Source: Methylotenera sp. RIFCSPLOWO2_02_FULL_45_14 (GTDB lineage Bacteria; Pseudomonadota; Gammaproteobacteria; Burkholderiales; Methylophilaceae). Taken from it: a stretch of 64,000 nucleotides of DNA. The notes beneath the pieces were generated by a model. The model made no database searches. It was not told the DNA's origin and was given only the letters and a program-made list of their open reading frames with translations. This document shows positions 28,748 through 57,699 of this stretch, piece by piece. The stretch is from NCBI GenBank assembly GCA_001803395.1, contig MHBU01000031.1, positions 1-64,000 on the forward strand, in the 5' to 3' direction. The translations under genes were made by a program, and so were the position numbers. Every line of letters starts with the position of its first letter. Within the stretch, counting starts at the first letter, position 1.

Positions 28748-29281
28748 CTAATGGTGATGGTGTTCATGCGCATCATTATTATTGCCAGTTTCCGTATTTG
28801 CTGCTTTTACTACCGCTTTAACTTGCTGCTTGAATTCAATATTATTTTGATGTTTAAAAGTGAGTGTAAAATTCACTTGCTCGCCCTCTGACAGCGGTTT
28901 TTTCAAATCAAATAGCATCAAATGAAAGCCGCCTGGTGCTAGCTGGTATGGCTTACCTGCGGTGAGTGGTAATGTCTCAAGCATGCGCATTTTCATCACG
29001 CCATTCTGCATGCTCATGCTATGAATCTCAACGCTTTTAGTCACATCACTCTCAATGTGTACTAGATTGATATCTTGTTTGCTGGTAAGTGTCATGTAAG
29101 CGGCACCAACCTCTTGCCCAGCATTAGTCGGGCGAACCCAAGCATTTTGCACTGATACGACACTTTTGTCTGCTATAGCTTTTTGAGCTGAGGCTACGTT
29201 TTTAGCCTGTGCAGCAGCGGCGCTTATCGCCAACGTTAACATTAAGACGCGTGAGAAGTGTTGAAGTAATGCGTGGCTCAT
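28748..29281 (-). CDS. Periplasmic copper chaperone PCu(A)C
   Basis: 177 residues. A signal peptide (about 1-27) leads into a PCu(A)C domain (PF04314) with the Cu(I)-binding ligands in EIHSMSM, MKMRMLE and GGFHLMLFDL, i.e. the H-M-(X)n-M-(X)n-H-X-M pattern. The C terminus is His-rich (AHEHHHH), an added metal-binding tail. In other bacteria the protein delivers copper to the CuA site of cytochrome oxidase, together with a SCO protein; a SCO homologue and both oxidases lie at 54-64 kb. Convergent with the Nudix gene. Confidence 0.92.
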   Translation of the reverse strand: MSHALLQHFSRVLMLTLAISAAAAQAKNVASAQKAIADKSVVSVQNAWVRPTNAGQEVGAAYMTLTSKQDINLVHIESDVTKSVEIHSMSMQNGVMKMRMLETLPLTAGKPYQLAPGGFHLMLFDLKKPLSEGEQVNFTLTFKHQNNIEFKQQVKAVVKAANTETGNNNDAHEHHHH

Positions 29282-44993: not shown

Positions 44994-45632
44994 ATGCCAG
45001 ACTGGAAAAAGCTCATAGAAGGCAAAGTTGCTTTAGCTAAGCGTGGTGCAAAGCCAGGTAAAGCGAATAGCAATGAGCGCATTCCTGCTGGGCAGACTGA
45101 AGTCAAAAGCTTCCCGACATTGGATTTGGGTATTCGTCCGCAGGTATCGTCCCAAAATTGGAAGTTGTGCGTTTATGGCTTGGTTGAACATGAACTCAAT
45201 ATAGATTGGGATACGTTTCAGGCAATGCCTCAGGTTACAGAAGTTTCGGATTTTCACTGTGTGACGCGCTGGAGTCAGTTAGATATGGATTGGCATGGCG
45301 TACGTGCGCAGGATGTTTTAGCCATGGCGCAACCCAAACCAGCCGCTAAATTCGTCACCCTGCACGGCTATGATGGTTATAGTACTAACTTACCTTTGGA
45401 AGCGTTATTAGATGACGATGTCATCATTGCGCATCGTGTTCTAGGCGCGGCTTTAACGCCTGAGCACGGTGGGCCAGTACGTATTGTTGTGCCTAAACGC
45501 TATGCCTGGAAAGGCGCAAAGTGGCTCAAGGCGATTGAGTTACATGCGGTTGATCGGCCAGGTTTCTGGGAAGTACGTGGTTATCACAATGAGGCCGACC
45601 CGTGGCGCGAGCAGCGATTTAGCGACGATTAA
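44994..45632 (+). CDS. Sulfite oxidase-like molybdopterin oxidoreductase
   Basis: 212 residues with the oxidoreductase molybdopterin-binding domain (PF00174). The molybdenum-ligating Cys is Cys89 in SDFHCVTRWSQL, followed by GYDGYSTNLPLEAL and PKRYAWKGAKW. There is no signal peptide or haem domain, so this is the short cytosolic type, whose substrate is unknown. It comes 20 bases after lspA. Its 3' end overlaps the convergent regA-like gene by 14 bases. Confidence 0.88.
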   Translation: MPDWKKLIEGKVALAKRGAKPGKANSNERIPAGQTEVKSFPTLDLGIRPQVSSQNWKLCVYGLVEHELNIDWDTFQAMPQVTEVSDFHCVTRWSQLDMDWHGVRAQDVLAMAQPKPAAKFVTLHGYDGYSTNLPLEALLDDDVIIAHRVLGAALTPEHGGPVRIVVPKRYAWKGAKWLKAIELHAVDRPGFWEVRGYHNEADPWREQRFSDD

Positions 45633-46206
45633 ATAAACCTAACTCGTTAATGGCAGGATTTAAGCTAGGTTTTTTGTTTAATTTTCTTTGTAATGTGCGT
45701 CTGTGCATATTCAGGCTACGCGCGGTGGCTGAGATGTTGCCATCATTTTCTGCTAATACGCGTTGAATATGCTCCCATTCTAAGCGGTCAATAGAGAGTG
45801 GGCTGTGAGACAACTCTACTTCAGCATCACCCGATTGTTTTTCAAACGCGGCAACAATTTCATCCGCATCTACAGGTTTTGCAAGGTAATGTGTCGCGCC
45901 TAATTTGATGGCTTCAATTGCTGTGGTAATACTTGCGTAACCAGTGAGCACAACAATGTTAATACCTGCATTTAAGCTCGCAAGTTGTCGAATCAGCACC
46001 AAGCCTGAATTGCCTGACATTTTGAGATCTACTACCGCAAATTCAGGCGCATCGTTTTTAGCAAGCTCAAAAGCCGTTTCTGCGCTATTCGCCGTAGTGA
46101 CTAAAAAACCTCGCTTACGCATGGCAGGTGCAAGCACGCTTAAAAACTCAGCATCATCATCCACCAATAATAATGTTGGCTTTTCATCTGCAATAATAGT
46201 ACTCAT
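45619..46206 (-). CDS. regA: RegA/PrrA/ActR-type redox response regulator
   Basis: 195 residues. A receiver domain (about 8-130) with acidic DDDAEF, phosphoacceptor Asp in FAVVDLKMSGNSG and Lys in YLAKPVDADEI is joined by a short linker to a Fis-type helix-turn-helix (HIQRVLAENDGNISATARSLNMHRRTLQRKL, about 148-178). The Pro-rich linker and HTH match the RegA family, which controls oxidases, photosynthesis or nitrogen genes by redox state. The start overlaps the regB stop by four bases. Confidence 0.9.
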   Translation of the reverse strand: MSTIIADEKPTLLLVDDDAEFLSVLAPAMRKRGFLVTTANSAETAFELAKNDAPEFAVVDLKMSGNSGLVLIRQLASLNAGINIVVLTGYASITTAIEAIKLGATHYLAKPVDADEIVAAFEKQSGDAEVELSHSPLSIDRLEWEHIQRVLAENDGNISATARSLNMHRRTLQRKLNKKPSLNPAINELGLFNRR

Positions 46207-47513
46207 GGACTCACCTTTAATTTTTTTAATGGTATTTTTACGATAGTGATTACGCCGCCATCAGGATGGTTGCCAAGCTTTAGCTTGCCTTCATAACGCG
46301 CCAGTGTGGTTTGTGTTAAATACACGCCCAGTCCCATGCCTTTTTCACTTTTTGAAGTGAAAAATGGTTTGCCTAGATGCTTTGCAACTTCCTCTGTTAG
46401 CCCTGAACCAAAATCACGGATTTTAATTGTTAGCACAGCTTCATCCCATTCGGCATTAAACAAGACGCGTTCAGGGGAGGCATCAGCCGCATTGTCTAGT
46501 AAATTTTGAATCGCCTGCGTGAGGGTTTTATCCGTAAAGATTAAAGGATTGTGAATGTTTTCACTGAGTGAGGTGACCAGTTCAGTCGCCGGTCGCATAT
46601 CGCGCCAGCGCTGAATAGTTTCTTGTAAATACTCACGCAATACTATGCCATGGCCAGTATCGGCACGGCTTTTACCTGCATCACGCGTAATGGAAGATAA
46701 AATCTCTTTGCAGCGTAAAATCTGCCTAACTATGATATCTAATTGCTGTAACTGCTCAGGTTGGTTGACCAGGTCGTGCGCAAGCTCCTTGCTTATCACG
46801 GCCATGGTTGCAAGCGGCGTGCCTAGCTCGTGTGCCGCGCTGGTAGCCAGCGTGCCTAATGCCAACATGCGTTCACTTTCAAGTGATATTTCACGTATCG
46901 ATGCCAACATGCGGTCGTAATCGCGCAAACTTTGCCCAATACGGGTGATAAAAAAGGCAATGATGCCAGCACTTACCACAAAGCCTAACCACATGCCCAC
47001 CAAGTGAATATCTAGTGTTTTGCCAGCCAAGTCGTGCATGTGCAAATGTGACAGCGGTACGTAATAAAACACCAATGCAGAATAACAGGCTACAGCAATG
47101 GCGGTGAGTAGCCAGGCATGTTCACGCTTTAATGCCACCGCTGCCACGGTGAGTGGCAATAAATACATCCATACCAGTGGGTTGCTATAACCGCCTGTAA
47201 AATAAAATAACAGCGTAAGCGCAGCTAAATCACCCAAAAGCTGTAGTAAAAGCTCTTTATCATTGACGTCACTGTGTTTTTTTAAACGCACTAATGTCAC
47301 TAGGTTGAGTAGCAACATAGCACCCACAGCAAGAATAATCGGTAATTTTGGCAGTGGAATATGCATGTAAAATAGCGCCGTTGTGGCTGCCAGCATAGAG
47401 ATAATCATCACGCTACGCAGAAAAAATAAACGCTGCAAATTGCGACGTAAGGGATTTTCTAACCCAGTTCGATTGAGTGCGTTAACTTGTGTAGTTTGAG
47501 GATACGTTGCCAT
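46203..47513 (-). CDS. regB: RegB/PrrB/ActS-type redox sensor histidine kinase
   Basis: 436 residues, about six N-terminal membrane helices (30-190), then a kinase. The quinone-sensing heptapeptide region of the family is present as GGYSNPL (107-113; consensus GGxxNPF). The phosphoacceptor His228 is in SAAHELGTPLAT. Cys268 in QILRCKEIL lies exactly 40 residues later, matching the spacing of His225 and redox-active Cys265 in Rhodobacter RegB. HATPase motifs are NLLDNAADASPE, DFGSGL and GMGLGVYLTQ. Located beside copper and oxidase genes that RegA orthologues control elsewhere. Confidence 0.92.
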   Translation of the reverse strand: MATYPQTTQVNALNRTGLENPLRRNLQRLFFLRSVMIISMLAATTALFYMHIPLPKLPIILAVGAMLLLNLVTLVRLKKHSDVNDKELLLQLLGDLAALTLLFYFTGGYSNPLVWMYLLPLTVAAVALKREHAWLLTAIAVACYSALVFYYVPLSHLHMHDLAGKTLDIHLVGMWLGFVVSAGIIAFFITRIGQSLRDYDRMLASIREISLESERMLALGTLATSAAHELGTPLATMAVISKELAHDLVNQPEQLQQLDIIVRQILRCKEILSSITRDAGKSRADTGHGIVLREYLQETIQRWRDMRPATELVTSLSENIHNPLIFTDKTLTQAIQNLLDNAADASPERVLFNAEWDEAVLTIKIRDFGSGLTEEVAKHLGKPFFTSKSEKGMGLGVYLTQTTLARYEGKLKLGNHPDGGVITIVKIPLKKLKVSP

Positions 47514-47709
47514 GCATCACATTATATAGTGGATTATAAATATCAGAATGTGACAAATCGTCGCGCAGATAAATTGCTCAGTACAGTATATTGATCAACT
47601 AACTAGCAACTGCAATTGATATGATTTGCAGATGATTTCTCAATGGATTTGGTGTGTTTACAGGTATACAATCAGCCTATTAATTTAAACTCACGAAAAG
47701 GAATTTGCA

Positions 47710-48150
47710 ATGAACAGGAGAGAATTGTTATTAAGTGGCGTGGCGTTAGCAGGGGCGGCGATTGTTGGTAAAGCACACGCAGTTGAGGGGCATAAACATC
47801 AGCACCATCATGGAGGTACCGTGAATACAGGTTTAATTACGGCGGCGTCAGATTGCATACAAAAAGGGCAAGTTTGCCTTAGCCATTGTCTAACATTGCT
47901 AGGTCAAGGCGATAAAGAAATGGCAGCCTGTGCCCAAAGTGTGAATCAGATGTTGGCCGTATGTGGCGCGTTGCAACAGCTTGCAAGCCAAGAGTCGGCC
48001 TATTTAAAAAGCCAAGCCAAAATTGCGATGGATATTTGCAAGGAATGTGAAGATGAATGCAAAAAACATGCAGATAAACATGATGCCTGCAAAGCGTGTA
48101 TGGAAAGCTGTACTGCATGTTATAAAGAATGTAAGAAAGTGGCAGCCTAA
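47710..48150 (+). CDS. csp1: Tat-exported copper storage protein (Csp1-like, four-helix bundle)
   Basis: 146 residues. Tat-type signal with Arg pair in MNRRELLLSG and a cleavage region near AHA, followed by a His-rich start (GHKHQHHHGG). The mature domain carries 13 cysteines in helical spacing, including CKECEDEC and CKACMESCTACYKEC, and VCLSHC. Methanotroph Csp1 also has 13 Cys lining its four-helix core and stores many Cu(I) ions. Export makes it a periplasmic store. It is divergent from regB and about 190 bases upstream of a copper-related receptor cluster. A terminator follows. Confidence 0.9.
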   Translation: MNRRELLLSGVALAGAAIVGKAHAVEGHKHQHHHGGTVNTGLITAASDCIQKGQVCLSHCLTLLGQGDKEMAACAQSVNQMLAVCGALQQLASQESAYLKSQAKIAMDICKECEDECKKHADKHDACKACMESCTACYKECKKVAA

Positions 48151-48182
48151 AAACGGATTCTTGAAATACAGATGTGATTAAA

Positions 48183-48205
48183 AAGAGCCGAGAGGCTCTT
48201 TTTTT
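48183..48205 (+). terminator. Rho-independent terminator of the Csp1-like gene
   Basis: A seven-bp stem AAGAGCC / GGCTCTT with a GAGA tetraloop is followed by a run of T, 33 bases after the stop codon. Confidence 0.85.
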
Positions 48206-48341
48206 GTTGTAATAATTTTGTACATGTTGCCTTGGAGCAAAGTGCTGCGACAATATGCCACATTCCGCATGGTTTTTATTTCATATACACTCAAGCCAAG
48301 TTTTATTTATCAGTTAAACAATAAAAGTTGGGGTGGGGAGA

Positions 48342-50660
48342 ATGCAGAATAAACTTATTTTTGCTTTAGTTGTAGCTACGTTCGGTAATGTGGCTTGGGC
48401 AGAACATAAGGAGACTATCAATTTAGATGCGGTGACAGTACGTGCACCAATGATTGATAGTCGTATTACCAAGCATCCGGCCACTGTTGAGACTTTTGAT
48501 AAAAAACAAATTGAAGAAAACGTCAACGCGGCAACTCCTGCGCAAACCTTGAAATATCTTCCCAGCATTCAAGTACGTGAGCGTTTTATTGGTGATCGCA
48601 ACGGCATTATTGCCACGCGTACCATTGGCACACTATCTAGCGCGCAAAGCATGTTGTATGCGGATGGTGTGTTGCTTTCTAATTTACTCGGCAATTCGTT
48701 TGCTTTTCCGCCGCGCTGGGGGATGGTTAGCCCAGAGGAAATCGAAAGTATGAGCATGATGTATGGGCCATTCTCGGCACTTTACGCAGGAAACTCGTTT
48801 GGCGGTGTAATTAGTATTGCCACACGTATGCCAGAGAAATTTGAGGTACATGCGAGCGTGCAGGCGTTTGCGCAAAATTTTGAGCTTTACGGCACTGACG
48901 AAAATTATAATGGCAATCATTTAACGGCGTCATTCGGCAACAAAGTGAATGATTTTGCGTTTTGGTTGGGGGTGGATCGTTTAGAAAGTGAAGGTCATCC
49001 GATGAATTTTTCAACGGCGAACCTTTCAACTACAGCACCTGAGGCAAGCCCTGTGGTGACGGGAGCGTATCAGGATAAAAGTGAAACCAATGCCAATCGT
49101 CTCATTTTTGGAGCAAATAGCATTGACGATACCAAGCAAACTAACATTAAATTCAAAGCGACTTACGACATCACCCCAACCATTAAAGCAGCTTATACTC
49201 TGGGTGTATGGGATATGGATGGAAAAACAGACGTGCAAAGCTATATTAAAGATGCGGCAGGTAACACGGTGTATAACGGTCGTATAAACTTTAATGGCAA
49301 GCGTTATGATATTTCCGGCATGAATCCAGGCGAGGCAGAAGCTTTGCATATCATGCACGCCTTGGACATCAAATCGAACACCAAAGGTTTTTTTGATTGG
49401 GAACTGACACTCTCAGATTACGATTATCAAAAAGATAAAAATAGTGCTGCTAATGCGTCGTCTACAGGTACTATTGCTCAAGGAGACCCCTACAGAACAC
49501 GCGCTGGCCGCGTGACAGACCTGGAAGGTACTGGCTGGACGGTGTTTGATGCACGCGCTACCTTGCGCCCGCATGACCACACCATTGATATTGGCTACCA
49601 TGTGGATCAATACGAGCTAAGCAGCGAAACAAATAACACAGCTGATTGGTCAATTGGCACTAAAGGTACGTTGAATGCTTCTGCACGTGGCGAAACACGT
49701 ACCCAGGCACTCTATGCGCAAGATAAATGGCAGATTAACCCGCAATGGGCGCTGACTTTTGGCGGACGTGCCGAGCATTGGGAGGCGAATGATGGGCAAA
49801 ATAAGACGATTATTTCTAACGTATTGAGAACTGCCAATTATAAAGATGTATCTGAAACTAAATTCTCACCTAAAATCTCATTGAGCTTTGAGCCGCAGCC
49901 CGCTTGGGGCTTCCGCGCGGCGTTGGGGCAGGCATTCCGTTTTCCCACTGTAAGTGAAATGTTCCAGCCTTTGCAAAATGGGGCCACAGCCTACTTCGTG
50001 CAGGCTAACCCAATCTTAAAACCAGAAGAAGTGATTGCGGGCGAGTTCACGGCAGAGCGTCGCTTTGATAATGGCTTAGTACGAGCCAGCTTATTTAGTG
50101 AAAATAAATATGATGCGCTGATTTCGCAGACTTTAAGAAATGGCAGTGCAATTCCCTACGATACAGGTACTTGCACCAATCCAAGGAATTGTAGCTTTGT
50201 GCAGAGTGTTGACCATATTCGCACGCGTGGACTTGAATTGGCAACCCAATGGCAAGATGTATTTGTGCATGGCCTGGATTTACAAGGTAGCGTAACTTTT
50301 ACCGAGGCCGAGGTTTTACGTAACGATGGCGCACCTAACACTGTAGGTAATAAACCACCGCGTATTCCAAGAAACATGTTTAAGGTGGTGGCGACTTACC
50401 ACAAAGGTAATAATCTCACATATAGTTTCGCTGCGCGCTATAGCGGCCGGCAGTATAATGCTTTGGACAATAGCGACATTAACCCCGACACATTTGGTGG
50501 TGCGAGCAAATTCTTTGTGATGGATGTTAAAGCCAATTACAAATTCGCAGACCGTTACACCGCCAGTTTGGGCGTGGATAATTTGAATAATTACAAATCG
50601 TATGTGTTTCACCCTTATCCACAGCGCACTGGCTATGTGCAATTGAAATTTGATTATTGA
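48342..50660 (+). CDS. TonB-dependent outer membrane receptor, possibly for copper
   Basis: 772 residues from the ATG at 48342 (Gly-rich Shine-Dalgarno upstream; a GTG at 48333 is less likely). A signal peptide ends near AWA (about 19-20). The plug domain (about 30-165) has VETFDKKQIEENV, ALYAGNSFGGVISIAT; the 22-strand barrel ends in aromatic KFDY. The family imports ligands such as metal chelates or cobalamin. Neighbours are a copper storage gene upstream and a translationally coupled propeller protein downstream, so copper uptake is an inference. It is not a named receptor I can assign. Confidence 0.87.
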   Translation: MQNKLIFALVVATFGNVAWAEHKETINLDAVTVRAPMIDSRITKHPATVETFDKKQIEENVNAATPAQTLKYLPSIQVRERFIGDRNGIIATRTIGTLSSAQSMLYADGVLLSNLLGNSFAFPPRWGMVSPEEIESMSMMYGPFSALYAGNSFGGVISIATRMPEKFEVHASVQAFAQNFELYGTDENYNGNHLTASFGNKVNDFAFWLGVDRLESEGHPMNFSTANLSTTAPEASPVVTGAYQDKSETNANRLIFGANSIDDTKQTNIKFKATYDITPTIKAAYTLGVWDMDGKTDVQSYIKDAAGNTVYNGRINFNGKRYDISGMNPGEAEALHIMHALDIKSNTKGFFDWELTLSDYDYQKDKNSAANASSTGTIAQGDPYRTRAGRVTDLEGTGWTVFDARATLRPHDHTIDIGYHVDQYELSSETNNTADWSIGTKGTLNASARGETRTQALYAQDKWQINPQWALTFGGRAEHWEANDGQNKTIISNVLRTANYKDVSETKFSPKISLSFEPQPAWGFRAALGQAFRFPTVSEMFQPLQNGATAYFVQANPILKPEEVIAGEFTAERRFDNGLVRASLFSENKYDALISQTLRNGSAIPYDTGTCTNPRNCSFVQSVDHIRTRGLELATQWQDVFVHGLDLQGSVTFTEAEVLRNDGAPNTVGNKPPRIPRNMFKVVATYHKGNNLTYSFAARYSGRQYNALDNSDINPDTFGGASKFFVMDVKANYKFADRYTASLGVDNLNNYKSYVFHPYPQRTGYVQLKFDY

Positions 50661-51883
50661 TGATAAAAAACCTACTCATATTGTGTTTGGCTGGTTTCGT
50701 ATTTAATGCGCATGCTCATGAAGACCACACCAAACATCAAAAGGCGGCATTAGCAATCAGCTTGGCTTTTGATGCGCAGGGCAACCTGTGGCGAGCTAGT
50801 GTGCAGGATGGTTTTGTGATGGTGGGTGTGAGCCGTGATTCAGGCAAAACCTTTTCGACGCCAGTAAAAGCGAACCTGGTGCCACATAAAATCGGCGCAG
50901 ATGGTGAAGCGCGCCCGAAAATTGCAGTCTCGTCAGAAGGGTATATTTATCTTACCTGGACGGAGGCACTGAAAAAGCCATTTTCAGGCTATATATGGTT
51001 TGCACGGTCAATCGACGCAGGTAGAACGTTTGAGACGCCTTATATCGTGCATCGGGATCGCGATGAAATTACGCATCGGTTTGATTCACTCAATGTGGCG
51101 GCAGATGGAAAAATTACCGTTACATGGGTGGACAAGCGCGATTTAATTGCCGCTAAAGCCGCTAATAAACCTTACGATGGTGCGGCGATTTATTATGCGG
51201 TTTCTAACAATAAAGGCGAGAGTTTTATACCTGAACAAAAGCTCGCGGATAGTAGTTGCGAGTGTTGTCGCATTGCGCTCACTAATAAGCCGGACGGGAC
51301 TGTGGTTGCCATGTGGCGGCACGTATTTGCAGGTAGTGAGCGCGACCATATGATAGCCGAAATTCCCAATATGTCTCCTGCCATAAACAAAGCTCCAGCG
51401 CCTAAACGCGCTACTTTTGGCCGCTGGAAAATAGACGGCTGCCCACATCACGGTGCAGCACTAGCCAGCGGCGGCGAGGGCAAAAGCTGGTGGGGATATC
51501 ATATGGCGTGGTTTGATGGTGGTAACGATGATGCTGGCAGAGATGCCACACTGTTTTATGGGCGTATGGATGGCGAGGCTTGGGTGTCATCTCCCCCCAA
51601 AAAGTTCGGCAATATGGCAAGGCAGGCTGGTCATCCTGCGCTGGCTACGATAGGTGAAAATGTTTGGTTGGCATGGCGCGAAAAAAATGCGGGTAAAAGC
51701 CAAATTTGGGTGATGCACTCTGGCGATGAGGGTAAAAGTTGGGAGGCAGCCTACATGCTACTTGAGGTTGATGGTATGGCAGATTATCCGGTGCTCATGC
51801 AAAAAGAAAAGCAATTATTTTTAGTTTGGAATACAGATAAAGAAGCTTTGAAAGTGTTGGCATTATCGCCGCATACCCAGTAG
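50660..51883 (+). CDS. Exported BNR/Asp-box beta-propeller protein with Cys- and His-rich motifs
   Basis: 407 residues. Its ATG overlaps the receptor TGA by one base (TGATG), so the two are coupled. A signal peptide (about 1-20, ending AHA) precedes HEDHTKHQK, a His-rich start. The body is a six-bladed sialidase-type propeller with Asp-boxes SRDSGKTF, SIDAGRTF, SNNKGESF and SGDEGKSW. Sialidase catalysis is unlikely; instead the SSCECCR motif (about 197-203) and CPHHG (about 258) look like metal ligands. It probably works with the receptor in metal capture. No family name is certain. Confidence 0.75.
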   Translation: MIKNLLILCLAGFVFNAHAHEDHTKHQKAALAISLAFDAQGNLWRASVQDGFVMVGVSRDSGKTFSTPVKANLVPHKIGADGEARPKIAVSSEGYIYLTWTEALKKPFSGYIWFARSIDAGRTFETPYIVHRDRDEITHRFDSLNVAADGKITVTWVDKRDLIAAKAANKPYDGAAIYYAVSNNKGESFIPEQKLADSSCECCRIALTNKPDGTVVAMWRHVFAGSERDHMIAEIPNMSPAINKAPAPKRATFGRWKIDGCPHHGAALASGGEGKSWWGYHMAWFDGGNDDAGRDATLFYGRMDGEAWVSSPPKKFGNMARQAGHPALATIGENVWLAWREKNAGKSQIWVMHSGDEGKSWEAAYMLLEVDGMADYPVLMQKEKQLFLVWNTDKEALKVLALSPHTQ

Positions 51884-51894
51884 TTGTTGCTTAG

Positions 51895-52554
51895 CTACGT
51901 ACACCATACCTTGGTATTGTGCGTGAGTTCCATCCAGATCGCCCATGCGCTGGCGCCGCTGAGTAGTAGGCCTGCTAAACGCATGCCGTAGGGTTCTACT
52001 GTTTTGGTTTTAAGTTTAAGCCAAAGCCAAGGCGCTAAAAATAACGAGACGCTAGAGCCTGCAGCAAATGCCGCCATACTAATTGCGCCATCAAGCGGGT
52101 TGCCATTGAACGATGCAATAATCAGCGCAGAATATAACAAGCCGCATGGCATAAGTGCCCACAGCATGCCGACATAAAAATGGCCGCCTTGTTTTATGCT
52201 GAGTTTTTTTACATGTCCCCAAATGTTGCGTCCTGCGCGGTCAACCCAAACCGGTTGGCGTGCAAAAACCAGCAGCAAAACACCCCAAAAAAACACTAAT
52301 ACATGAAAAAAAGTCCAAAGCGGGTGCAGTATGGCGCTGTAACTTGATAACCATGCAATGCTTTGTATGGCGAAAGTAGCAATTGCGCCAAGCGTGGCAT
52401 AGCCACACAGACGCCCTAGATGATAAAGATAGATGCCGCGAGGTTGCTGCGGTGACTGCGTTAATGCGGTACAAGCCGCACCGCACATAGCAACGCAGTG
52501 CGGACCGCCAGCCAAGCCCATGATTAGGGCGCTGTAGGTGAGCGCAGACTGCAT
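51895..52554 (-). CDS. TauE/SafE- or DsbD_2-like membrane protein of the cbb3 assembly cluster
   Basis: 219 residues with six or more membrane helices and the conserved N-terminal LAGGPHCVAMCGAACTAL, whose Cys-X3-Cys motif lies in the first helix pair. The protein belongs to the family often annotated sulfite exporter TauE/SafE or UreH-like, typically encoded at the end of the ccoNOQP-ccoG group and thought to help copper or thiol supply to the oxidase. It follows the fixH-like gene by two bases. Convergent with the propeller gene. Confidence 0.8.
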   Translation of the reverse strand: MQSALTYSALIMGLAGGPHCVAMCGAACTALTQSPQQPRGIYLYHLGRLCGYATLGAIATFAIQSIAWLSSYSAILHPLWTFFHVLVFFWGVLLLVFARQPVWVDRAGRNIWGHVKKLSIKQGGHFYVGMLWALMPCGLLYSALIIASFNGNPLDGAISMAAFAAGSSVSLFLAPWLWLKLKTKTVEPYGMRLAGLLLSGASAWAIWMELTHNTKVWCT

Positions 52555-52556
52555 GT

Positions 52557-52817
52557 TTATTGTTTATTCACACCCGTGGCTGCGTGATTGCGTGCGCGCC
52601 CGGCAGGCTCTAGAGAATTTTTTTGATCCACCGTTAATGACTTAGTGTAATTGCCGGAATTTTCTTCATGGGCTAGTACCGGGTCTTGACCATTCACAGC
52701 AATATATACGGTGGTTAAGCTGGCAACGACGACCACTGCAGGACCTGTAAAAACCAGCCATGCGTAGCCTGATTTCCACCATTTAGGTTTTTGATTGGGG
52801 GGTTGATTGCTTGTCAT
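52557..52817 (-). CDS. Small FixH/CcoH-like membrane protein
   Basis: 86 residues. One membrane helix (about 17-42, YAWLVFTGPAVVVVASLTTVYIA) is followed by a short, probably periplasmic tail with VNGQDPVL. The position between ccoG and the TauE-like gene, ten bases from ccoG, and the NGQDP motif point to the short form of FixH/CcoH, which assists cbb3 oxidase maturation. The identification is mostly positional. Confidence 0.65.
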   Translation of the reverse strand: MTSNQPPNQKPKWWKSGYAWLVFTGPAVVVVASLTTVYIAVNGQDPVLAHEENSGNYTKSLTVDQKNSLEPAGRARNHAATGVNKQ

Positions 52818-52827
52818 GACTTAACCT

Positions 52828-54264
52828 TTAGCGAGACATATAAAAAATTGATTTTTCAGAGATTTCTTCATGCGAGCTGGCAGCCTCAATTTCAAACTCA
52901 ATCGGATGTGAACCGCTCTTAATTGAGCCATCCTCAATTTGCAAGCTCACTGCAACCATGCGGGATTCAGCGGGATTAACTGTAAATTCCTTATCTGATG
53001 CAATGGATAAGCCTTTAATGCCCTCCACTGAGATGCGATAGGTTTCCAGTTTCTCAGAGGCATTGGTAATTTGTAGTCGATATACGTTTTCAACTTTACC
53101 ACCAGGGACCAGACGTGACATTACGCCGCGATCTCGAATAACATCTACTTTAAATGGGACGCGGGTAGCAAGCGAGTAAACAAGGCCAGCGCTCATTAGT
53201 AATAATAGCCCGCTATAAACAAGCACGCGCGGGCGTAAAATTTTTCGGATAACTTGATGTTGCGTCCAGTGATGCGTGAGGGCATTTTGTGTTGAAAACC
53301 GGATTAAACCACGTGGGTATTCCATTTTATCCATAATGCTGTTGCATGCGTCCACACATAGCCCGCAGCTAATACACTCATACTGCAAGCCATTGCGTAT
53401 ATCAATGCCTGTTGGGCAGACTTGCACGCAGAAATTGCAATCAATACAGTCACCTAAACCAGACTTTTTGGCATCGACTTTGCGAGAACGGCCGCTGCGC
53501 GGCTCTCCACGTTCTTCATCGTAAGTAACGATGAGGGTGTCGTTGTCAAACATAGCACTTTGAAAGCGTGCATACGGGCACATGTGTTTGCAGATTTGCT
53601 CACGTAAAAAGCCTGCATTGCCGTAGGTGGCAAACCCATAAAAGCATATCCAGAAAGTTTCCCATGGGCTTAGATTAAATAGCGCAATGTTTTGCATGAG
53701 GTCACGTATTGGGGTGAAGTAACCTAAGAAAGTAAAGCCGGTCCACATTGAAAAACTAATCCAAGCCAAATGTTTTAGCCACTTCTTGTAAAACTTTTTA
53801 AAGCCAAATTTCATGCTGTCTAAACGTATACGCGCTGCGCGGTCGCCCTCAACCTGGCGTTCAATCCATAAAAATATTTTGGTATAGACCGATTGTGGGC
53901 AAGCAAAACCACACCATAGCCTGCCAGCAACCGCTGTAAATAAGAAAAGGGCTAACGCTGCAATAATCAAAATGACTACAAGATAAATTAAATCCTGCGG
54001 ATAAAGCACTAAGCCAAAAATATAGAAGCGATGCGTGCTGATGTCGAGCAGCATCGCCTGGCGCTCACCCCATTGTAGCCATGGCACACCATAGAATACC
54101 AATTGCGTAATCCAGATCATGGCCCAGCGCCAGTTTTTGTAAAAGCCAGAGGTATTGCGAGGATAGATTTTTTGATGCGCTTCGTAGAGTGATACAGATT
54201 TAACTTTTGAAGCATCACTGGCGATAGGAATAACTTTTTTCGACTTTTGTTTCTGATTAGGCAC
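52828..54264 (-). CDS. ccoG: cbb3 oxidase accessory protein CcoG (FixG), Fe-S membrane protein
   Basis: 478 residues. Several membrane helices (about 40-230) hold CGFACPQSVYTKIF. A dicluster ferredoxin domain follows with CIDCNFCVQVCPTGIDIRNG and CISCGLCVDACN (about 260-305), then a helix at about 348 and a C-terminal immunoglobulin-like domain (PF11614). CcoG is reported to reduce Cu(II) for oxidase assembly. It lies downstream of ccoP with a large palindrome between them. Confidence 0.95.
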   Translation of the reverse strand: MPNQKQKSKKVIPIASDASKVKSVSLYEAHQKIYPRNTSGFYKNWRWAMIWITQLVFYGVPWLQWGERQAMLLDISTHRFYIFGLVLYPQDLIYLVVILIIAALALFLFTAVAGRLWCGFACPQSVYTKIFLWIERQVEGDRAARIRLDSMKFGFKKFYKKWLKHLAWISFSMWTGFTFLGYFTPIRDLMQNIALFNLSPWETFWICFYGFATYGNAGFLREQICKHMCPYARFQSAMFDNDTLIVTYDEERGEPRSGRSRKVDAKKSGLGDCIDCNFCVQVCPTGIDIRNGLQYECISCGLCVDACNSIMDKMEYPRGLIRFSTQNALTHHWTQHQVIRKILRPRVLVYSGLLLLMSAGLVYSLATRVPFKVDVIRDRGVMSRLVPGGKVENVYRLQITNASEKLETYRISVEGIKGLSIASDKEFTVNPAESRMVAVSLQIEDGSIKSGSHPIEFEIEAASSHEEISEKSIFYMSR

Positions 54265-54308
54265 TTGTTTTGAGACCTTGCATAAATGGTGATGCAGAAA
54301 TAGACAAT

Positions 54309-54341
54309 GCCCGATATTTTTGCACGTGCAAAATATCGGGC
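54309..54341. promoter_or_regulatory. Long palindrome between ccoP and ccoG
   Basis: GCCCGATATTT-T-TGCA CG TGCAAAATATCGGGC forms a near-perfect 15-bp inverted repeat with one bulged T, in the 147-base gap. It has no T tract, so an operator or an mRNA-processing hairpin that sets ccoG levels is more likely than a simple terminator. Confidence 0.6.
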
Positions 54342-54411
54342 GTCAAGTAACAGTGAGATTATTCAATCTGCATTAAAGTTTCATGCAAATGATCAATTAA
54401 CTAATTGCCTA

Positions 54412-55323
54412 TTATTGTGCTTTAGCTGAATTTGAAAAGCGCCAAACATAAGAAGCCAATACATGAATTTGCTCAGGCGTTAAGCGTGAACCTTGTGCCG
54501 GCATTTGGTTGCTTTTACCGTTGTTAATACGGTCGATAATAGCGGCTTCGCCTGCGCCATGTAGCCAAATGTCATCGGTAAGATTCGGCGCGCCAATGGC
54601 TTGGTTGCCTTTGCCATCAGCACCATGACAAGCTGCACACGCGGTAAATTTATCTTTACCTAATGCTGCAAGTTTGGCGTCATGTGTGCTGCTAGATAAA
54701 CTGAGTACATAGTTAGTTACATTTTTAACGTCTTCAGGTGTACCAATTGCCTGTGCCATTGGCGGCATCATGCCGTGACGACCGTTGGTAATGGTTTCTT
54801 TGATTGTTTCTGGTGCGCCACCGTATAACCAGTCGTTGTCAGTTAAGTTGGGAAAGCCGCGACTGCCATGCGCATCTGAACCATGACATTGTGAGCAGTT
54901 GTTCATAAATAAACGTTCACCAATCGCCATTGCTTTGGCATCCTGGGCAACATCTTCAGCTTTCATGGCAGTAAAAGCAGCATAGATAGGCGCTATGCGA
55001 TCGTTGGATTCTTTCACTTCCTGGTCATACTGGTTTGCCTGTGTCCAGCCCAATGCGCCTTTATAGTTACCTAACCCTGGGTAGAGAAATAGGTAAATTG
55101 CACCGAATACACAGGTGATAATAAACATCCACATCCACCATCTAGGCATAGGGTTGTTCATTTCCACAATATCTTCATCATACACGTGGCCAGTTGATTG
55201 ACCTGTATGGCGAGGATCGTGTGATTTGCTGGTAACAAACAATACGACTAAACAGAAAATAATACCGCCAATGACAATGGCTGAAATGAAAATCGGCCAA
55301 AAATTGCTTGTAAAGTCACTCAT
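54412..55323 (-). CDS. ccoP: cbb3-type cytochrome c oxidase subunit III, dihaem (CcoP)
   Basis: 303 residues. Two membrane segments (about 8-30 and 60-80) anchor two cytochrome c domains with CSQCHG (about 141-146) and CAACHG (about 229-234). Passes electrons from soluble cytochrome c to CcoO. Its ATG overlaps the ccoQ TGA by four bases. Last oxidase subunit gene of the ccoNOQP operon. Confidence 0.96.
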   Translation of the reverse strand: MSDFTSNFWPIFISAIVIGGIIFCLVVLFVTSKSHDPRHTGQSTGHVYDEDIVEMNNPMPRWWMWMFIITCVFGAIYLFLYPGLGNYKGALGWTQANQYDQEVKESNDRIAPIYAAFTAMKAEDVAQDAKAMAIGERLFMNNCSQCHGSDAHGSRGFPNLTDNDWLYGGAPETIKETITNGRHGMMPPMAQAIGTPEDVKNVTNYVLSLSSSTHDAKLAALGKDKFTACAACHGADGKGNQAIGAPNLTDDIWLHGAGEAAIIDRINNGKSNQMPAQGSRLTPEQIHVLASYVWRFSNSAKAQ

Positions 55324-55463
55324 TCTTCATCTCCTTCAAGCGGCAATCTTGCCGCTTCATCAAAATCTTTTTTATGCCGCCCAGACCATGCCCACACCCA
55401 AATGCCGACAAAGGTCACCAAGGCGGCAACGGTTGCTATGCTGCGTAAATCAGTAATGTCCAT
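55320..55463 (-). CDS. ccoQ: cbb3-type cytochrome c oxidase subunit CcoQ
   Basis: 47 residues: one membrane helix (about 9-27, ending in WVWAWS) followed by RHKKDFDEAARLPLEGD. The stop TGA overlaps the ccoP ATG. The short length, single helix and position between ccoO and ccoP are standard for CcoQ, which stabilises the complex. The frame was read directly from the sequence. Confidence 0.9.
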   Translation of the reverse strand: MDITDLRSIATVAALVTFVGIWVWAWSGRHKKDFDEAARLPLEGDEE

Positions 55464-55472
55464 ATTGCGCGC

Positions 55473-56099
55473 TTACTGTTTAAGTGCTGTGCCAAGCACT
55501 TGTAAATAGGCAATCATGGCTTCCATTTCTGTTTTACCATAAACATCATTTGCGGCATTTTTGATTTCTTCATCCGTATATGGCACACCTGCAATTTTTA
55601 ATGCGCGTAGGTGAGCCGGCATTTTTTCTGCGTTCACCAGGTTTTTTTCTAACCAAGGATAACCAGGCATGACAGATTCTGGCACTAAATCACGCGGGTT
55701 AATTAAGTGAATGCGGTGCCATTCGTCGCTATAGCGTTCGCCTACACGTGCTAAATCAGGCCCAGTACGTTTGCTGCCCCATTGAAATGGATGATCAAAC
55801 ACCGACTCACCAGCCACTGAGTAATGACCATAACGCAAGGTTTCAGCTTTAAATGGACGTATCATTTGCGAGTGGCAGTTGTAGCAGCCTTCGCGTAAGT
55901 AAATGTCACGCCCCGCTTGTTGCAATGCGGTATAAGGTTTTAATCCTTCAATCGGTTGTGTGGTTGATTTTTGGAAAAACAACGGCACGATTTCAACCAA
56001 ACCACCGAATGAAACCACCACTAAAATCAACACAATCATCAAGAAGCTGTTGGTTTCAATCTTCTCGTGCGTAAACCCTTTTTTTTCATTATCTGACAT
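55473..56099 (-). CDS. ccoO: cbb3-type cytochrome c oxidase subunit II, monohaem (CcoO)
   Basis: 208 residues. One N-terminal membrane anchor (about 17-37) leads to a cytochrome c domain with CYNCHSQ (about 73-79), preceded by REG and followed by MIRPFKAET, both typical of CcoO. A Met ligand is in SVMPGYPWL. Receives electrons from CcoP and passes them to CcoN. Ten-base gap to ccoQ. Confidence 0.96.
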
Positions 56100-56110
56100 T
56101 TCTATATTCC

Positions 56111-57544
56111 TTAAGCGTGCGCCGCGACAGCTGGAATTCTAGCTGGCGTTGCTTGACCCATTTGTACAGTTTTAATGACGTTCCACAACATGATAATCAT
56201 GCCGCTCACGTACATTAAGCCACCTATCATACGAATGACGTAGAAAGGGTGCATTGCCTTCACGGACTCAACGAATGTATAAGTGAGCGTGCCGTCTTCA
56301 TTGACTGCGCGCCACATTAAACCAGCCGTTACGCCTGAAATCCACATGGCGGTGATATACAATACCACGCCGATAGTCGCCAACCAGAAGTGCAGCTCAA
56401 TGGCTTTTGTGCTGTACATTTGTTTTAGGCCCCACAAGCGTGGTGTTAAGAAATACAACGACCCCATAGAGATAAAGCCTACCCAGCCTAAAGCACCAGA
56501 GTGAACATGACCCACGGTCCAGTCTGTGTAGTGTGATAGCGCATTTACAGTTTTAATCGCCATCATTGGACCTTCAAACGTACTCATGCCGTAGAATGAA
56601 AGTGACACAATCATGAAGCGTAAAATTGGGTCATCACGTAGTTTGTGCCATGCACCAGACATGGTCATCATGCCGTTGATCATGCCGCCCCAGCTTGGCG
56701 CTAAGAGAATGAGCGATAACACCATGCCGACTGACTGCGTCCAATCAGGGAGCGCGGTGTAATGCAAGTGATGTGAACCTGCCCACATGTAAGTAAAAAT
56801 CAACCCCCAGAAGTGCACGATTGATAAGCGATATGAGTACACAGGACGTTGTGCTTGTTTTGGCACAAAATAGTACATCATGCCTAAAAATGCTGCGGTT
56901 AAAAAGAAGCCTACTGCGTTGTGACCATACCACCATTGGATCATGGCATCCTGTACGCCAGAATATGCTGAATATGACCTAAACCATTCAGATGGAATTG
57001 CTGCGCTGTTTACAATGTGCAGTAGCGCTACCACGATGATAAACGCGCCATAAAACCAATTAGCAACGTAAATGTGTTTGATTTTTCTGTTAGCAATAGT
57101 GCCAAAAAACACCAGCGCGTACATCACCCAAACCACTAATAGCAACAAGTCAATTGGCCACTCAAGTTCGGCGTATTCTTTACCTTGGGTATAACCTAAG
57201 GGCAAGCTGATGGCAGCGGCAAGAATGACAGCTTGATAGCCCCAGAATGTGTAACGGGCTAAAAGTGGAAAGGCTAATTTGACTTGGCTAGTACGTTGCA
57301 CAACGTAGTAAGACGTGGCAAACAAAGCACAGCCGCCAAAAGCAAAAATCACGGCATTGGTATGTAGCGGGCGTAAACGACCAAAGCTAATCCATGGCAG
57401 ATCAAAATTAAGTGCTGGAAAAGCAAGTTGTGCGGCAATAATCACGCCTACTAGCATGCCGACCACTCCCCAAACCACTGCCATCACGGTAAATTTTCTG
57501 ATGACGTAGTCGTCGTAAAACGTTTCTACATTATTGTTACTCAT
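56111..57544 (-). CDS. ccoN: cbb3-type cytochrome c oxidase subunit I (CcoN)
   Basis: 477 residues from the ATG at 57544. About 12 membrane helices with the haem b/b3 and CuB ligands, including [11 protein letters not shown] (first haem His), [11 protein letters not shown] and GSHHLHYT, and [18 protein letters not shown] with further His. This is the catalytic subunit of the high-affinity oxygen reductase used at low oxygen. First gene of ccoNOQP. A long upstream gap holds a palindrome. Confidence 0.97.
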
Positions 57545-57699
57545 CACTTCGGTCCTTAAATAAAACTAAAGAAAATTGATCATTAGGGGTAAGTTTTTGC
57601 TTGTTCCAACAAAATCTTAACTTGCGTGTTTTTTTACTGAATACAGCCCTCGCATCAAGTAGATGCCTCAATATCTTGCAATTATACAATGTAATATAT

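What the first reader, a model, noticed from the sequence alone, without database searches (positions are those of the whole stretch)
47710..51883. Copper acquisition and storage module beside the oxidase genes
A Tat-exported 13-Cys Csp1-like store, a TonB receptor and a translationally coupled propeller with SSCECCR and CPHHG motifs lie together, next to cbb3 genes that need copper. The propeller protein is not a recognised copper protein, so receptor plus propeller could be an undescribed outer-membrane/periplasmic metal-capture pair.
Basis: partly seen in the sequence, partly recalled or inferred. Interest (0 to 1): 0.7.

Follow-up and report, generated by a model that had tools for sequence, protein, structure and literature searches.

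The report
Copper-uptake operon with sialidase-like propeller
Next to its oxygen-respiration genes this bacterium carries a copper store, an outer-membrane receptor and a propeller-shaped protein of a kind filed in databases as sialidase-like; relatives of that propeller often sit among copper genes, so it is probably an overlooked copper-handling protein.

Summary
In detail: csp1 (47710-48150; TIGR04401 162 bits, cut-off 100), a TonB receptor (48333-50660) and a propeller (ATG 50660, stop 51883; TGATG overlap) lie between regBA and the cbb3 genes. The propeller has no Pfam or NCBIfam match above cut-off and folds as a sialidase/lectin-like seven-bladed propeller (pLDDT 90).

The copper reading is supported by comparison. 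Relatives at about 20% identity keep CxCC and CPxxG. In a phylum sample, 6 of 10 propeller loci have PCuAC just downstream, three of them headed by DUF2946 (CruR family). Of 10 plasmid loci inspected, nine have annotated copper genes and one a Csp-like gene. A copper-gene panel hits 16 of 51 propeller loci and 0 of 31 control loci. Against this: in the class sample DUF2946 and propeller share only one genome, and the panel hits only 4 of 31 class loci.

csp1 is an occasional neighbour (2 of 77 relative loci) with its own terminator-like hairpin. The more constant third part is a TlpA-like thioredoxin (20 of 31 class loci, 0 of 20 controls; twice fused to the propeller). Copper binding and transport are inferred. 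No paper on the propeller was found in the held library.

The parts
47710..48150 (+). csp1: Tat-type, 13-Cys periplasmic four-helix-bundle copper storage protein
   Evidence: TIGR04401 162.3 bits, cut-off 100; PDB Csp1 5fjd E 1.1e-21; 13 Cys counted
48180..48203 (+). terminator-like hairpin after csp1 (10 pairs, T-rich tail)
   Evidence: 7 such sites in the region against 5.0 +/- 2.5 in shuffles; this one has the longest stem; a similar hairpin is visible after csp1 in L069 (sequence)
48333..50660 (+). TonB-dependent outer-membrane receptor, 775 aa from the GTG (ATG at 48342 also possible)
   Evidence: PF00593 164 bits, PF07715 46 bits; no NCBIfam model over its cut-off
50660..51883 (+). exported seven-bladed beta-propeller, 407 aa, start codon overlapping the receptor's stop (TGATG)
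51251..51271 (+). SSCECCR motif (residues 198-204), loop between last strand of blade 3 and first of blade 4
   Evidence: C202 kept in 59 of 59 rows, C203 57, C200 56
51440..51454 (+). CPHHG motif (residues 261-265), loop between end of blade 4 and first strand of blade 5
   Evidence: C261 kept in 59 of 59 rows, H263 54, H264 53
45619..47513 (-). regB-regA redox two-component pair, divergent from csp1; possible regulator (inference)
   Evidence: best NCBIfam matches are ActS/PrrB/RegB and ActR/PrrA/RegA, below the equivalog cut-offs; RegA / RegB homologues near 7 / 6 of 31 class propeller loci and 0 of 31 control loci
51895..52554 (-). DsbD_2/CcdA-like membrane protein, convergent neighbour, present in 32 of 77 relative loci
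   Evidence: PF13386 136 bits
52557..57547 (-). cbb3 oxidase block: FixH-like, CcoG, CcoP, CcoO, CcoN (copper client)
   Evidence: CcoG TIGR02745 521 bits, FixH 21 bits, just below cut-off; CcoP/O/N named from translation and position, not scanned
28748..29281 (-). PCu(A)C copper chaperone, about 19 kb away in the window; its family is next to the propeller in other lineages
   Evidence: PF04314 126.7 bits
57897..63929 (-). second haem-copper oxidase block (UbiA-family CtaB, CtaA, COX3, CtaG, COX1)

Best explanation
The receptor and the propeller form the outer-membrane and periplasmic entry steps of a copper-supply line for haem-copper oxidases. The TonB receptor brings a copper chelate into the periplasm. 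The propeller, made from the overlapping gene and exported, takes the copper at a thiolate-rich site on one face, formed by the CxCC loop before blade 4 and the C-P loop after it, with nearby His in the Methylophilaceae type, probably as Cu(I). A TlpA-like thioredoxin, encoded next to it or fused to it in most of the wider class and phylum samples, keeps the thiols reduced or reduces the copper. PCuAC then delivers copper to the oxidases. In this genome Csp1 is a neighbouring store. Shown: gene order, motif conservation, predicted fold, copper-gene association with controls. Inferred: that the pair imports copper, that the propeller binds it, the ligands, the oxidation state and the hand-offs.
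For: Order TBDT-propeller-TlpA-like-PCuAC in L232-L235 and L238, and PCuAC downstream of the propeller in L236 (6 of 10 phylum loci, 4 families; PCuAC 130-149 bits against 29.4). DUF2946 at the head of L234, L236, L238 (43-71 bits against 23.7), DUF1775 and CopC-CopD following in L235. In 12 of 77 genome-contig loci a member of a DUF2946-type cluster lies upstream on the same strand; 10 of the 12 have CxxC and a PP ending, and the two members scanned pass Pfam. Of 10 plasmid loci inspected, nine have annotated copper genes, one a Csp-like gene, and all ten propellers both motifs. Copper panel 16 of 51 propeller loci, 0 of 31 controls. TlpA-like partner 20 of 31 against 0 of 20; fusions in L143 and L179. 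CxCC and CPxxG kept at about 20% identity and in 30 of 30 and 28 of 30 class-sample genes. Model pLDDT 90 with both motifs in consecutive same-face loops.
Against: In the class sample DUF2946 (29 of 369 genomes) and propeller (31 of 369) share one genome, 105 kb apart, where about 2.4 would be expected by chance. Only 4 of 31 class loci hit the panel, and PCuAC, present in 16 of 30 of those genomes, is nowhere seen near the propeller. With a wider panel 5 of 31 class loci score, but so does one of 20 controls (L213, an ATPase at 27%). Some full-length copies have a degraded site (L104, L131, L142). Loci are not independent: three PCuAC cases are one genus, the plasmid hits are mostly roseobacters. 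Plasmid contexts look like resistance rather than uptake. The window's genome has no DUF2946 match and no TlpA-like gene beside its propeller. No distances, no biochemistry.
Confidence: 0.66

Rival explanations
1. The propeller is mainly a redox protein, not a carrier: C202 and C261 form a disulfide or reactive pair that, fed with electrons by the TlpA-like partner, reduces Cu(II) chelate released by the receptor, a job comparable to that proposed for the PepSY_TM protein CrpH.
For: C202 and C261 are the only Cys kept in 59 of 59 rows, even where C200/C203 and His are lost; the seven half-size (192-226 aa) relatives read keep one Cys in each of the two regions (by eye); TlpA-like neighbour in 20 of 31 class loci, fused in L143 and L179.
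Against: The third and fourth Cys are kept in 90% or more of the divergent 21-row alignment. PepSY_TM genes coexist with the propeller in 16 of 77 loci, so a reductase of that kind is often already at hand.
Confidence: 0.22
2. It is a general periplasmic copper buffer used mostly in copper defence; the pairing with a receptor is one use among others.
For: Copper oxidases, Cus-like RND, P-type ATPase and CopC/CopD contexts on plasmids, with no TBDT gene listed next to the propeller (the plasmid gene table is incomplete); CopA/CopB homologues at L206, a CopF-like ATPase at L186.
Against: A TBDT is the commonest neighbour family in the class sample (21 of 108 neighbour proteins) and overlaps or nearly touches the propeller gene in 17 of 73 loci; PCuAC and CruR-type leaders point to supply.
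Confidence: 0.25
3. It is a real glycan-acting protein (sialidase, lyase or lectin) that frees or holds copper bound to exopolysaccharide.
For: Four Asp-boxes and sialidase, lectin and lyase structural matches.
Against: No Pfam family over its cut-off, BNR_2 26.5 against 31.4; loci of other BNR_2 proteins show 0 of 11 copper contexts; what marks the family across 20% identity is Cys, Trp, Asp and Gly. Catalytic residues of sialidases were not mapped.
Confidence: 0.07
4. The pair takes up another metal or cofactor (iron, haem, lanthanide).
For: The receptor's best sub-threshold families are haem receptors and its best solved relative is the haem receptor PhuR.
Against: Those scores are far below cut-off (107 against 324 bits); copper genes recur beside the propeller in Proteobacteria and Bacteroidota; no iron family among the 25 commonest families of the 108 neighbour proteins.
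Confidence: 0.06

Closest known systems
CruR-CrtA-CrpH operon of Bordetella pertussis (PMC9426467, PMC12914433, PMC13038864)
   Same: Copper-repressed TBDT operon; relatives here have a DUF2946 leader and PepSY_TM genes nearby; link to haem-copper oxidases
   Different: In the text seen, CrtA operons are described with PepSY_TM, not with a propeller or TlpA-like protein; the words propeller and sialidase do not occur in the three main texts; the window lacks the leader; the CrtA sequence could not be compared
Bradyrhizobium pcuABCDE copper-starvation operon (recalled; a passage on PcuB and PcuC seen in PMC12617631)
   Same: TBDT with PCuAC and, in L235, DUF1775 and CopC-CopD in the order I recall for PcuC-D-E
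   Different: Propeller and TlpA-like genes between receptor and PCuAC; whether PcuA is related was not tested
TccA, Caulobacter TBDT needed for aa3 oxidase (PMC12617631)
   Same: TBDT thought to feed copper to an oxidase
   Different: The words propeller and sialidase do not occur in the main text
OprC/NosA copper receptors (TIGR01778)
   Same: TBDT for copper; in L107 the propeller follows an OprC-like receptor (158 bits, below the 472 cut-off) with a CxxxM stretch seen by eye
   Different: The window's receptor does not match this model
Csp1 copper storage proteins
   Same: The window's csp1 is a member by sequence
   Different: None seen; only its neighbourhood is of interest
Sialidase-fold beta-propellers (sialidases, PLL lectins, PL25 lyases)
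   Same: Fold and Asp-boxes
   Different: No family membership over cut-off; marked by CxCC and CPxxG; copper context

Membership tests
Csp1 (TIGR04401) | Score over the curated cut-off | tested here: met
   162.3 against 100 bits
Csp1 (TIGR04401) | Tat signal and 13 Cys | tested here: met
   13 Cys counted; Tat motif judged by eye from the N-terminus MNRRELLLSG, no predictor run
Csp1 (TIGR04401) | Binds many Cu(I) ions | not testable with these tools
   needs purified protein
CrtA TBDT subfamily | Same sequence cluster as B. pertussis CrtA, conserved ligand residues incl. His358 | tested here: inconclusive
   CrtA entries 9RVQ/9RVX did not appear among the PDB matches of the receptor profile; the CrtA sequence was not at hand
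CrtA TBDT subfamily | CruR (DUF2946) leader upstream (reported for more than 40% of crtA operons) | tested here: not met
   no DUF2946 match in the window's genome; DUF2946-type gene upstream in 12 of 77 relative loci
CrtA TBDT subfamily | PepSY_TM gene directly downstream (reported for over 75% of loci) | tested here: not met
   the propeller follows in the window; 62-77% identical receptors in L075, L089, L105, L132 do have PepSY_TM next
OprC/NosA (TIGR01778) | Score over the curated cut-off | tested here: not met
   not listed at E <= 0.01 for the window's receptor
Sialidase / BNR_2 (PF13088) | Score over Pfam's gathering cut-off | tested here: not met
   26.5 against 31.4 bits
Sialidase / BNR_2 (PF13088) | Beta-propeller fold with Asp-boxes | tested here: met
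   four Asp-boxes, model and matches
Sialidase / BNR_2 (PF13088) | Catalytic Arg triad, Tyr-Glu pair, Asp (recalled) | not tested
   no coordinates available
PCuAC-linked copper TBDT operon (pcu-like) | PCuAC gene in the same operon | tested here: not met
   the window's PCuAC is about 19 kb away; met in 6 of 10 phylum-sample loci

The most novel reading that the evidence does not exclude
Propellers with CxCC and CPxxG, annotated as 'sialidase family protein' where annotated, are a previously unrecognised, cross-phylum family of periplasmic copper proteins. With a TlpA-like reductant they form a receptor-coupled acceptor module (CruR-TBDT-propeller-TlpA-PCuAC) that takes copper from outer-membrane receptors of quite different subfamilies, and the same propeller was reused in plasmid copper-defence islands.
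Probability: 0.5. Interest if true: 0.85.

Novelty: new variant of a known kind. Interest (0 to 1): 0.68.

Why it matters
How copper passes from an outer-membrane receptor to the periplasmic chaperones that feed respiratory oxidases was not settled in the copper-TBDT texts I looked at. A conserved partner whose gene overlaps the receptor's and which carries a Cys-rich site is a direct candidate for that step and can be purified and tested. It would also correct an annotation ('sialidase family protein', 'exo-alpha-sialidase') seen on many plasmid records and add a fold to copper proteins.

Tried and rejected
Rejected: csp1 as a core member (2 of 77 relative loci). Rejected: cbb3 adjacency as proof of function (cbb3 subunit genes in 14-15 of 77 loci, CcoI in 17; convergent orientation). 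Rejected as general: DUF2946 as a universal leader. Two neighbour controls were run: other TBDT loci of the same genomes (20 loci) and loci of other BNR_2 proteins (11 loci, several on short contigs, 139 kb in all). The propeller loci total 748 kb, the controls 454 kb. The panel is not wholly independent: besides Cupriavidus pMOL30 and E. coli cus genes it holds the window's PCuAC and Csp1, and DUF2946 seeds from propeller loci; no locus of the 16 scores by DUF2946 alone. The TlpA-like seeds also come from propeller loci.

A RegA-type box was considered: GYGACANNNYGYCRC occurs at 47550, 48247 and 53115 (3 against 0.10 expected), but I wrote the pattern after seeing two of the sites; the broader consensus I recalled gives 4 against 1.36, reached by 7 of 100 shuffles, which is not significant. 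Kept as a lead only.

Led nowhere: single-sequence search of the propeller against the PDB (none; the profile finds only weak sialidase matches); genome-contig scan with the very divergent alignment; papers on the propeller (searches returned none or unrelated papers). A lead not followed: a review passage (PMC7558416) says that loss of pcuC, senC2 or Pden_4445, 'a protein of unknown function', lowers N2O reduction at low copper in Paracoccus and that copper rescues the Pden_4445 and senC2 mutants. That the genes lie in an order like ours is recollection; the original paper is not held and the protein was not compared.

The second AlphaFold2 job and the Foldseek viral library were not used.

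Rows left out: L133 and L134 had no called propeller gene, one of 31 loci (L198) lost its propeller in gene calling, neighbours under 70 aa or with internal stops were dropped; the 10 plasmid loci were chosen by me, to spread genera, from 67, 63 and 45 overlapping records. Two of the 12 DUF2946-type upstream genes (L082, L102) lack CxxC and the PP ending and may be miscalled ORFs; the DUF2946 gene of L234 lacks CxxC. Gene calls in high-GC loci come from my own script and some are wrong (L232, L234 and L236 were read again). An earlier count gave rounder neighbour counts (21 and about 17 of 30); the recount is 19 and 15 of 30.


Full report
What is there. On the plus strand, between the divergent regB-regA pair (45619-47513, minus) and the convergent block DsbD_2-like, FixH-like, CcoG, CcoP, CcoO, CcoN (51895-57547, minus), lie csp1 (47710-48150), a TonB-dependent receptor (48333-50660) and a propeller gene (50660-51883). 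csp1 passes the Csp1 model with 162 bits (cut-off 100), has 13 Cys and aligns to crystallised Csp1 (5fjd, E 1.1e-21). The receptor has plug and barrel but reaches no curated subfamily cut-off. The receptor's stop codon overlaps an ATG of the propeller (TGATG). A terminator-like hairpin follows csp1 (48180-48203), so I read two transcription units. The genome is probably a Methylotenera or close to it, judging from the named relatives (best match 83% to a Methylotenera oryzisoli MAG). The window also carries a second haem-copper oxidase block and PCuAC at 28748-29281.

Distribution. Of 61 near genomes, our own included, 38 have a homologue at E <= 1e-3; in even draws of the class 31 of 369 and of the phylum 10 of 299, own included, at E <= 1e-10. 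Named relatives come from Methylophilaceae, Thiobacillus, Sterolibacterium, Sulfurimicrobium, other Proteobacteria and one Cloacimonadota MAG (92 relatives, best 80 kept, 79 loci); plasmid homologues come mainly from roseobacters, with Methylomagnum and Bacteroidota.

Neighbours. In the 77 genome-contig loci with a called propeller, a TBDT is directly upstream on the same strand in 36 of the 73 that hold an upstream gene, 17 with an overlap or at most 4 nt, 34 with at most 120 nt; a TlpA-like gene is directly downstream in 10; a DUF2946-type gene heads the same-strand run in 12 (10 of them with CxxC and a PP ending); PepSY_TM is present in 16, CcoI 17, CcoG 15, TonB 10, ExbB 9, csp1 2. In the class sample a TBDT is directly upstream on the same strand in 19 of 30 and the TlpA-like gene directly downstream in 15 of 30 (recounted); of 108 neighbour proteins within two genes, 21 hit the TBDT barrel and 10 AhpC-TSA. 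The TlpA-like gene occurs in 20 of 31 of these loci and 0 of 20 loci around other TBDTs of the same genomes (a second thioredoxin type is found in 6 and 1). In the phylum sample it occurs in 7 of 10. It is fused to the propeller's C-terminus in L143 (28% identity over 85 columns to the free form, E 9e-9) and L179. RegA and RegB homologues lie near 7 and 6 of 31, in none of 31 controls.

Copper. In the phylum sample six of ten propeller loci have PCuAC just downstream: L232-L235 and L238 as TBDT-propeller-TlpA-PCuAC, and L236, where no TlpA hit was found (three of the six from one genus, four families in all); Pfam confirms PCuAC with 130-149 bits. Three of them (L234, L236, L238) start with a DUF2946 gene ending in RAPP or AAPP (L234 lacks CxxC). 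DUF2946 proteins of the CruR type shut off a copper-linked TBDT operon when copper is present (PMC9426467; passages and section 10 read). L235 continues with DUF1775 and CopC-CopD. Ten plasmid loci were chosen by me to spread genera. Nine have annotated copper genes: copper or multicopper oxidase (L064, L065, L066, L068, L243, L244, L245), CopC (L067, L244), copper-translocating ATPase (L241). The tenth, Spirosoma L242, has a DUF326 protein (63 against 20 bits) that also hits the Csp1 model below cut-off. All ten propellers have both motifs at a near-constant distance (pattern starts 55, once 56, apart). A copper-gene panel at one threshold hits 16 of 51 propeller loci (plasmid 6 of 10, phylum 6 of 10, class 4 of 31) and 0 of 31 controls (20 TBDT, 11 BNR_2 loci). 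The loci are not independent, so I give no probability.

Results against. In the class sample DUF2946 (29 of 369) and the propeller (31 of 369) share one genome, 105 kb apart, about what chance gives or less; PCuAC is in 16 of 30 of those genomes but nowhere near the propeller; only 4 of 31 class loci carry panel genes. A wider panel scores in 5 of 31, and in one of 20 controls (L213, an ATPase at 27% identity). The receptor partner varies: window-type receptors (55-84% identity), a group near 42% and others at 18-28% precede the propeller; in L107 it is an OprC-like receptor (TIGR01778 158 bits, below cut-off). Receptors 62-77% identical to ours are followed by PepSY_TM in L075, L089, L105 and L132, with the propeller a few genes on. 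So what is constant is the propeller with some TBDT, more than a fixed receptor.

How it most likely works. A TonB receptor imports a copper chelate; the co-made propeller accepts the copper on its Cys-lined face; a TlpA-like reductant keeps the site or the copper reduced; PCuAC passes copper to the oxidases. In the window the TlpA-like neighbour and the CruR leader are absent; RegBA next door and the DsbD_2-like protein may fill regulatory and reducing roles, which is speculation. Csp1 is a neighbouring store.

Known or new. Copper-linked TBDT systems are described: CrtA/CruR/CrpH (PMC12914433: abstract, start of the introduction, sections 4, 7, 23 and passages; PMC9426467: passages and section 10; PMC13038864: passages), TccA and PcuB (PMC12617631: passages). 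The words propeller and sialidase do not occur in the main texts of these four papers, nor of PMC9973294, PMC7558416 or PMC6769254, of which I saw passages. Full-text searches combining sialidase, propeller or BNR with copper and TonB, PCuAC or multicopper oxidase gave nothing relevant. Subscription papers are mostly not held, so this is no proof of absence. I class the system as a new variant of a known kind, with a propeller family whose copper role I did not find described.

Noticed in passing
window 47550-47564, 48247-48261, 53115-53129: Imperfect inverted repeats of RegA/PrrA type (GTGACAAATCGTCGC, GCGACAATATGCCAC, GTGACATTACGCCGC); the first two lie in the intergenic regions on both sides of csp1, and the second has look-alikes upstream of the receptor in L069 and L146. 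The pattern was written after seeing two sites.
   Followed up: partly
L178, L180, L184, L186, L193, L206: RegB-RegA type two-component genes near TBDT-propeller loci in several families of the class, absent from 31 control loci; a redox regulator may be tied to this operon more widely than copper leaders.
   Followed up: partly
L051:9337-10017, L052:7951-8631, L053:8369-9034, L054, L056, L057, L063: Half-size (192-226 aa) propeller relatives with one Cys left of each motif. In L051-L053 they follow a TonB-ExbB-ExbD set (Pfam-checked in L052 only); L051 and L052 adjoin cbb3 genes, L054 a PepSY_TM gene; L052 and L053 also hold a full-length divergent propeller.
   Followed up: no
L075, L088, L089, L105, L132 and others: A divergent pair of EAL/GGDEF and HD-GYP genes lies between the TBDT(-PepSY_TM) and the propeller in many Methylophilaceae (EAL cluster in 22 loci; domains seen in L037); a c-di-GMP link is unexplained.
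   Followed up: no
L074:7854-8819, L090, L094, L098, L101, L104, L131: Putative outer-membrane protein with a CSSCGC stretch near its start (cluster c32), recurrent beside the propeller (9 loci); the one member scanned has no Pfam family.
   Followed up: no
L143:3969-4982: MauG-type di-haem peroxidase (PF03150) upstream of TonB-like and TBDT genes and the propeller-TlpA fusion in a Cloacimonadota MAG; recalls MbnH next to copper genes.
   Followed up: no
L242:7121-7489: DUF326/Csp-like Cys-rich protein beside the propeller on a Spirosoma plasmid: an independent Csp-propeller neighbourhood in Bacteroidota.
   Followed up: partly
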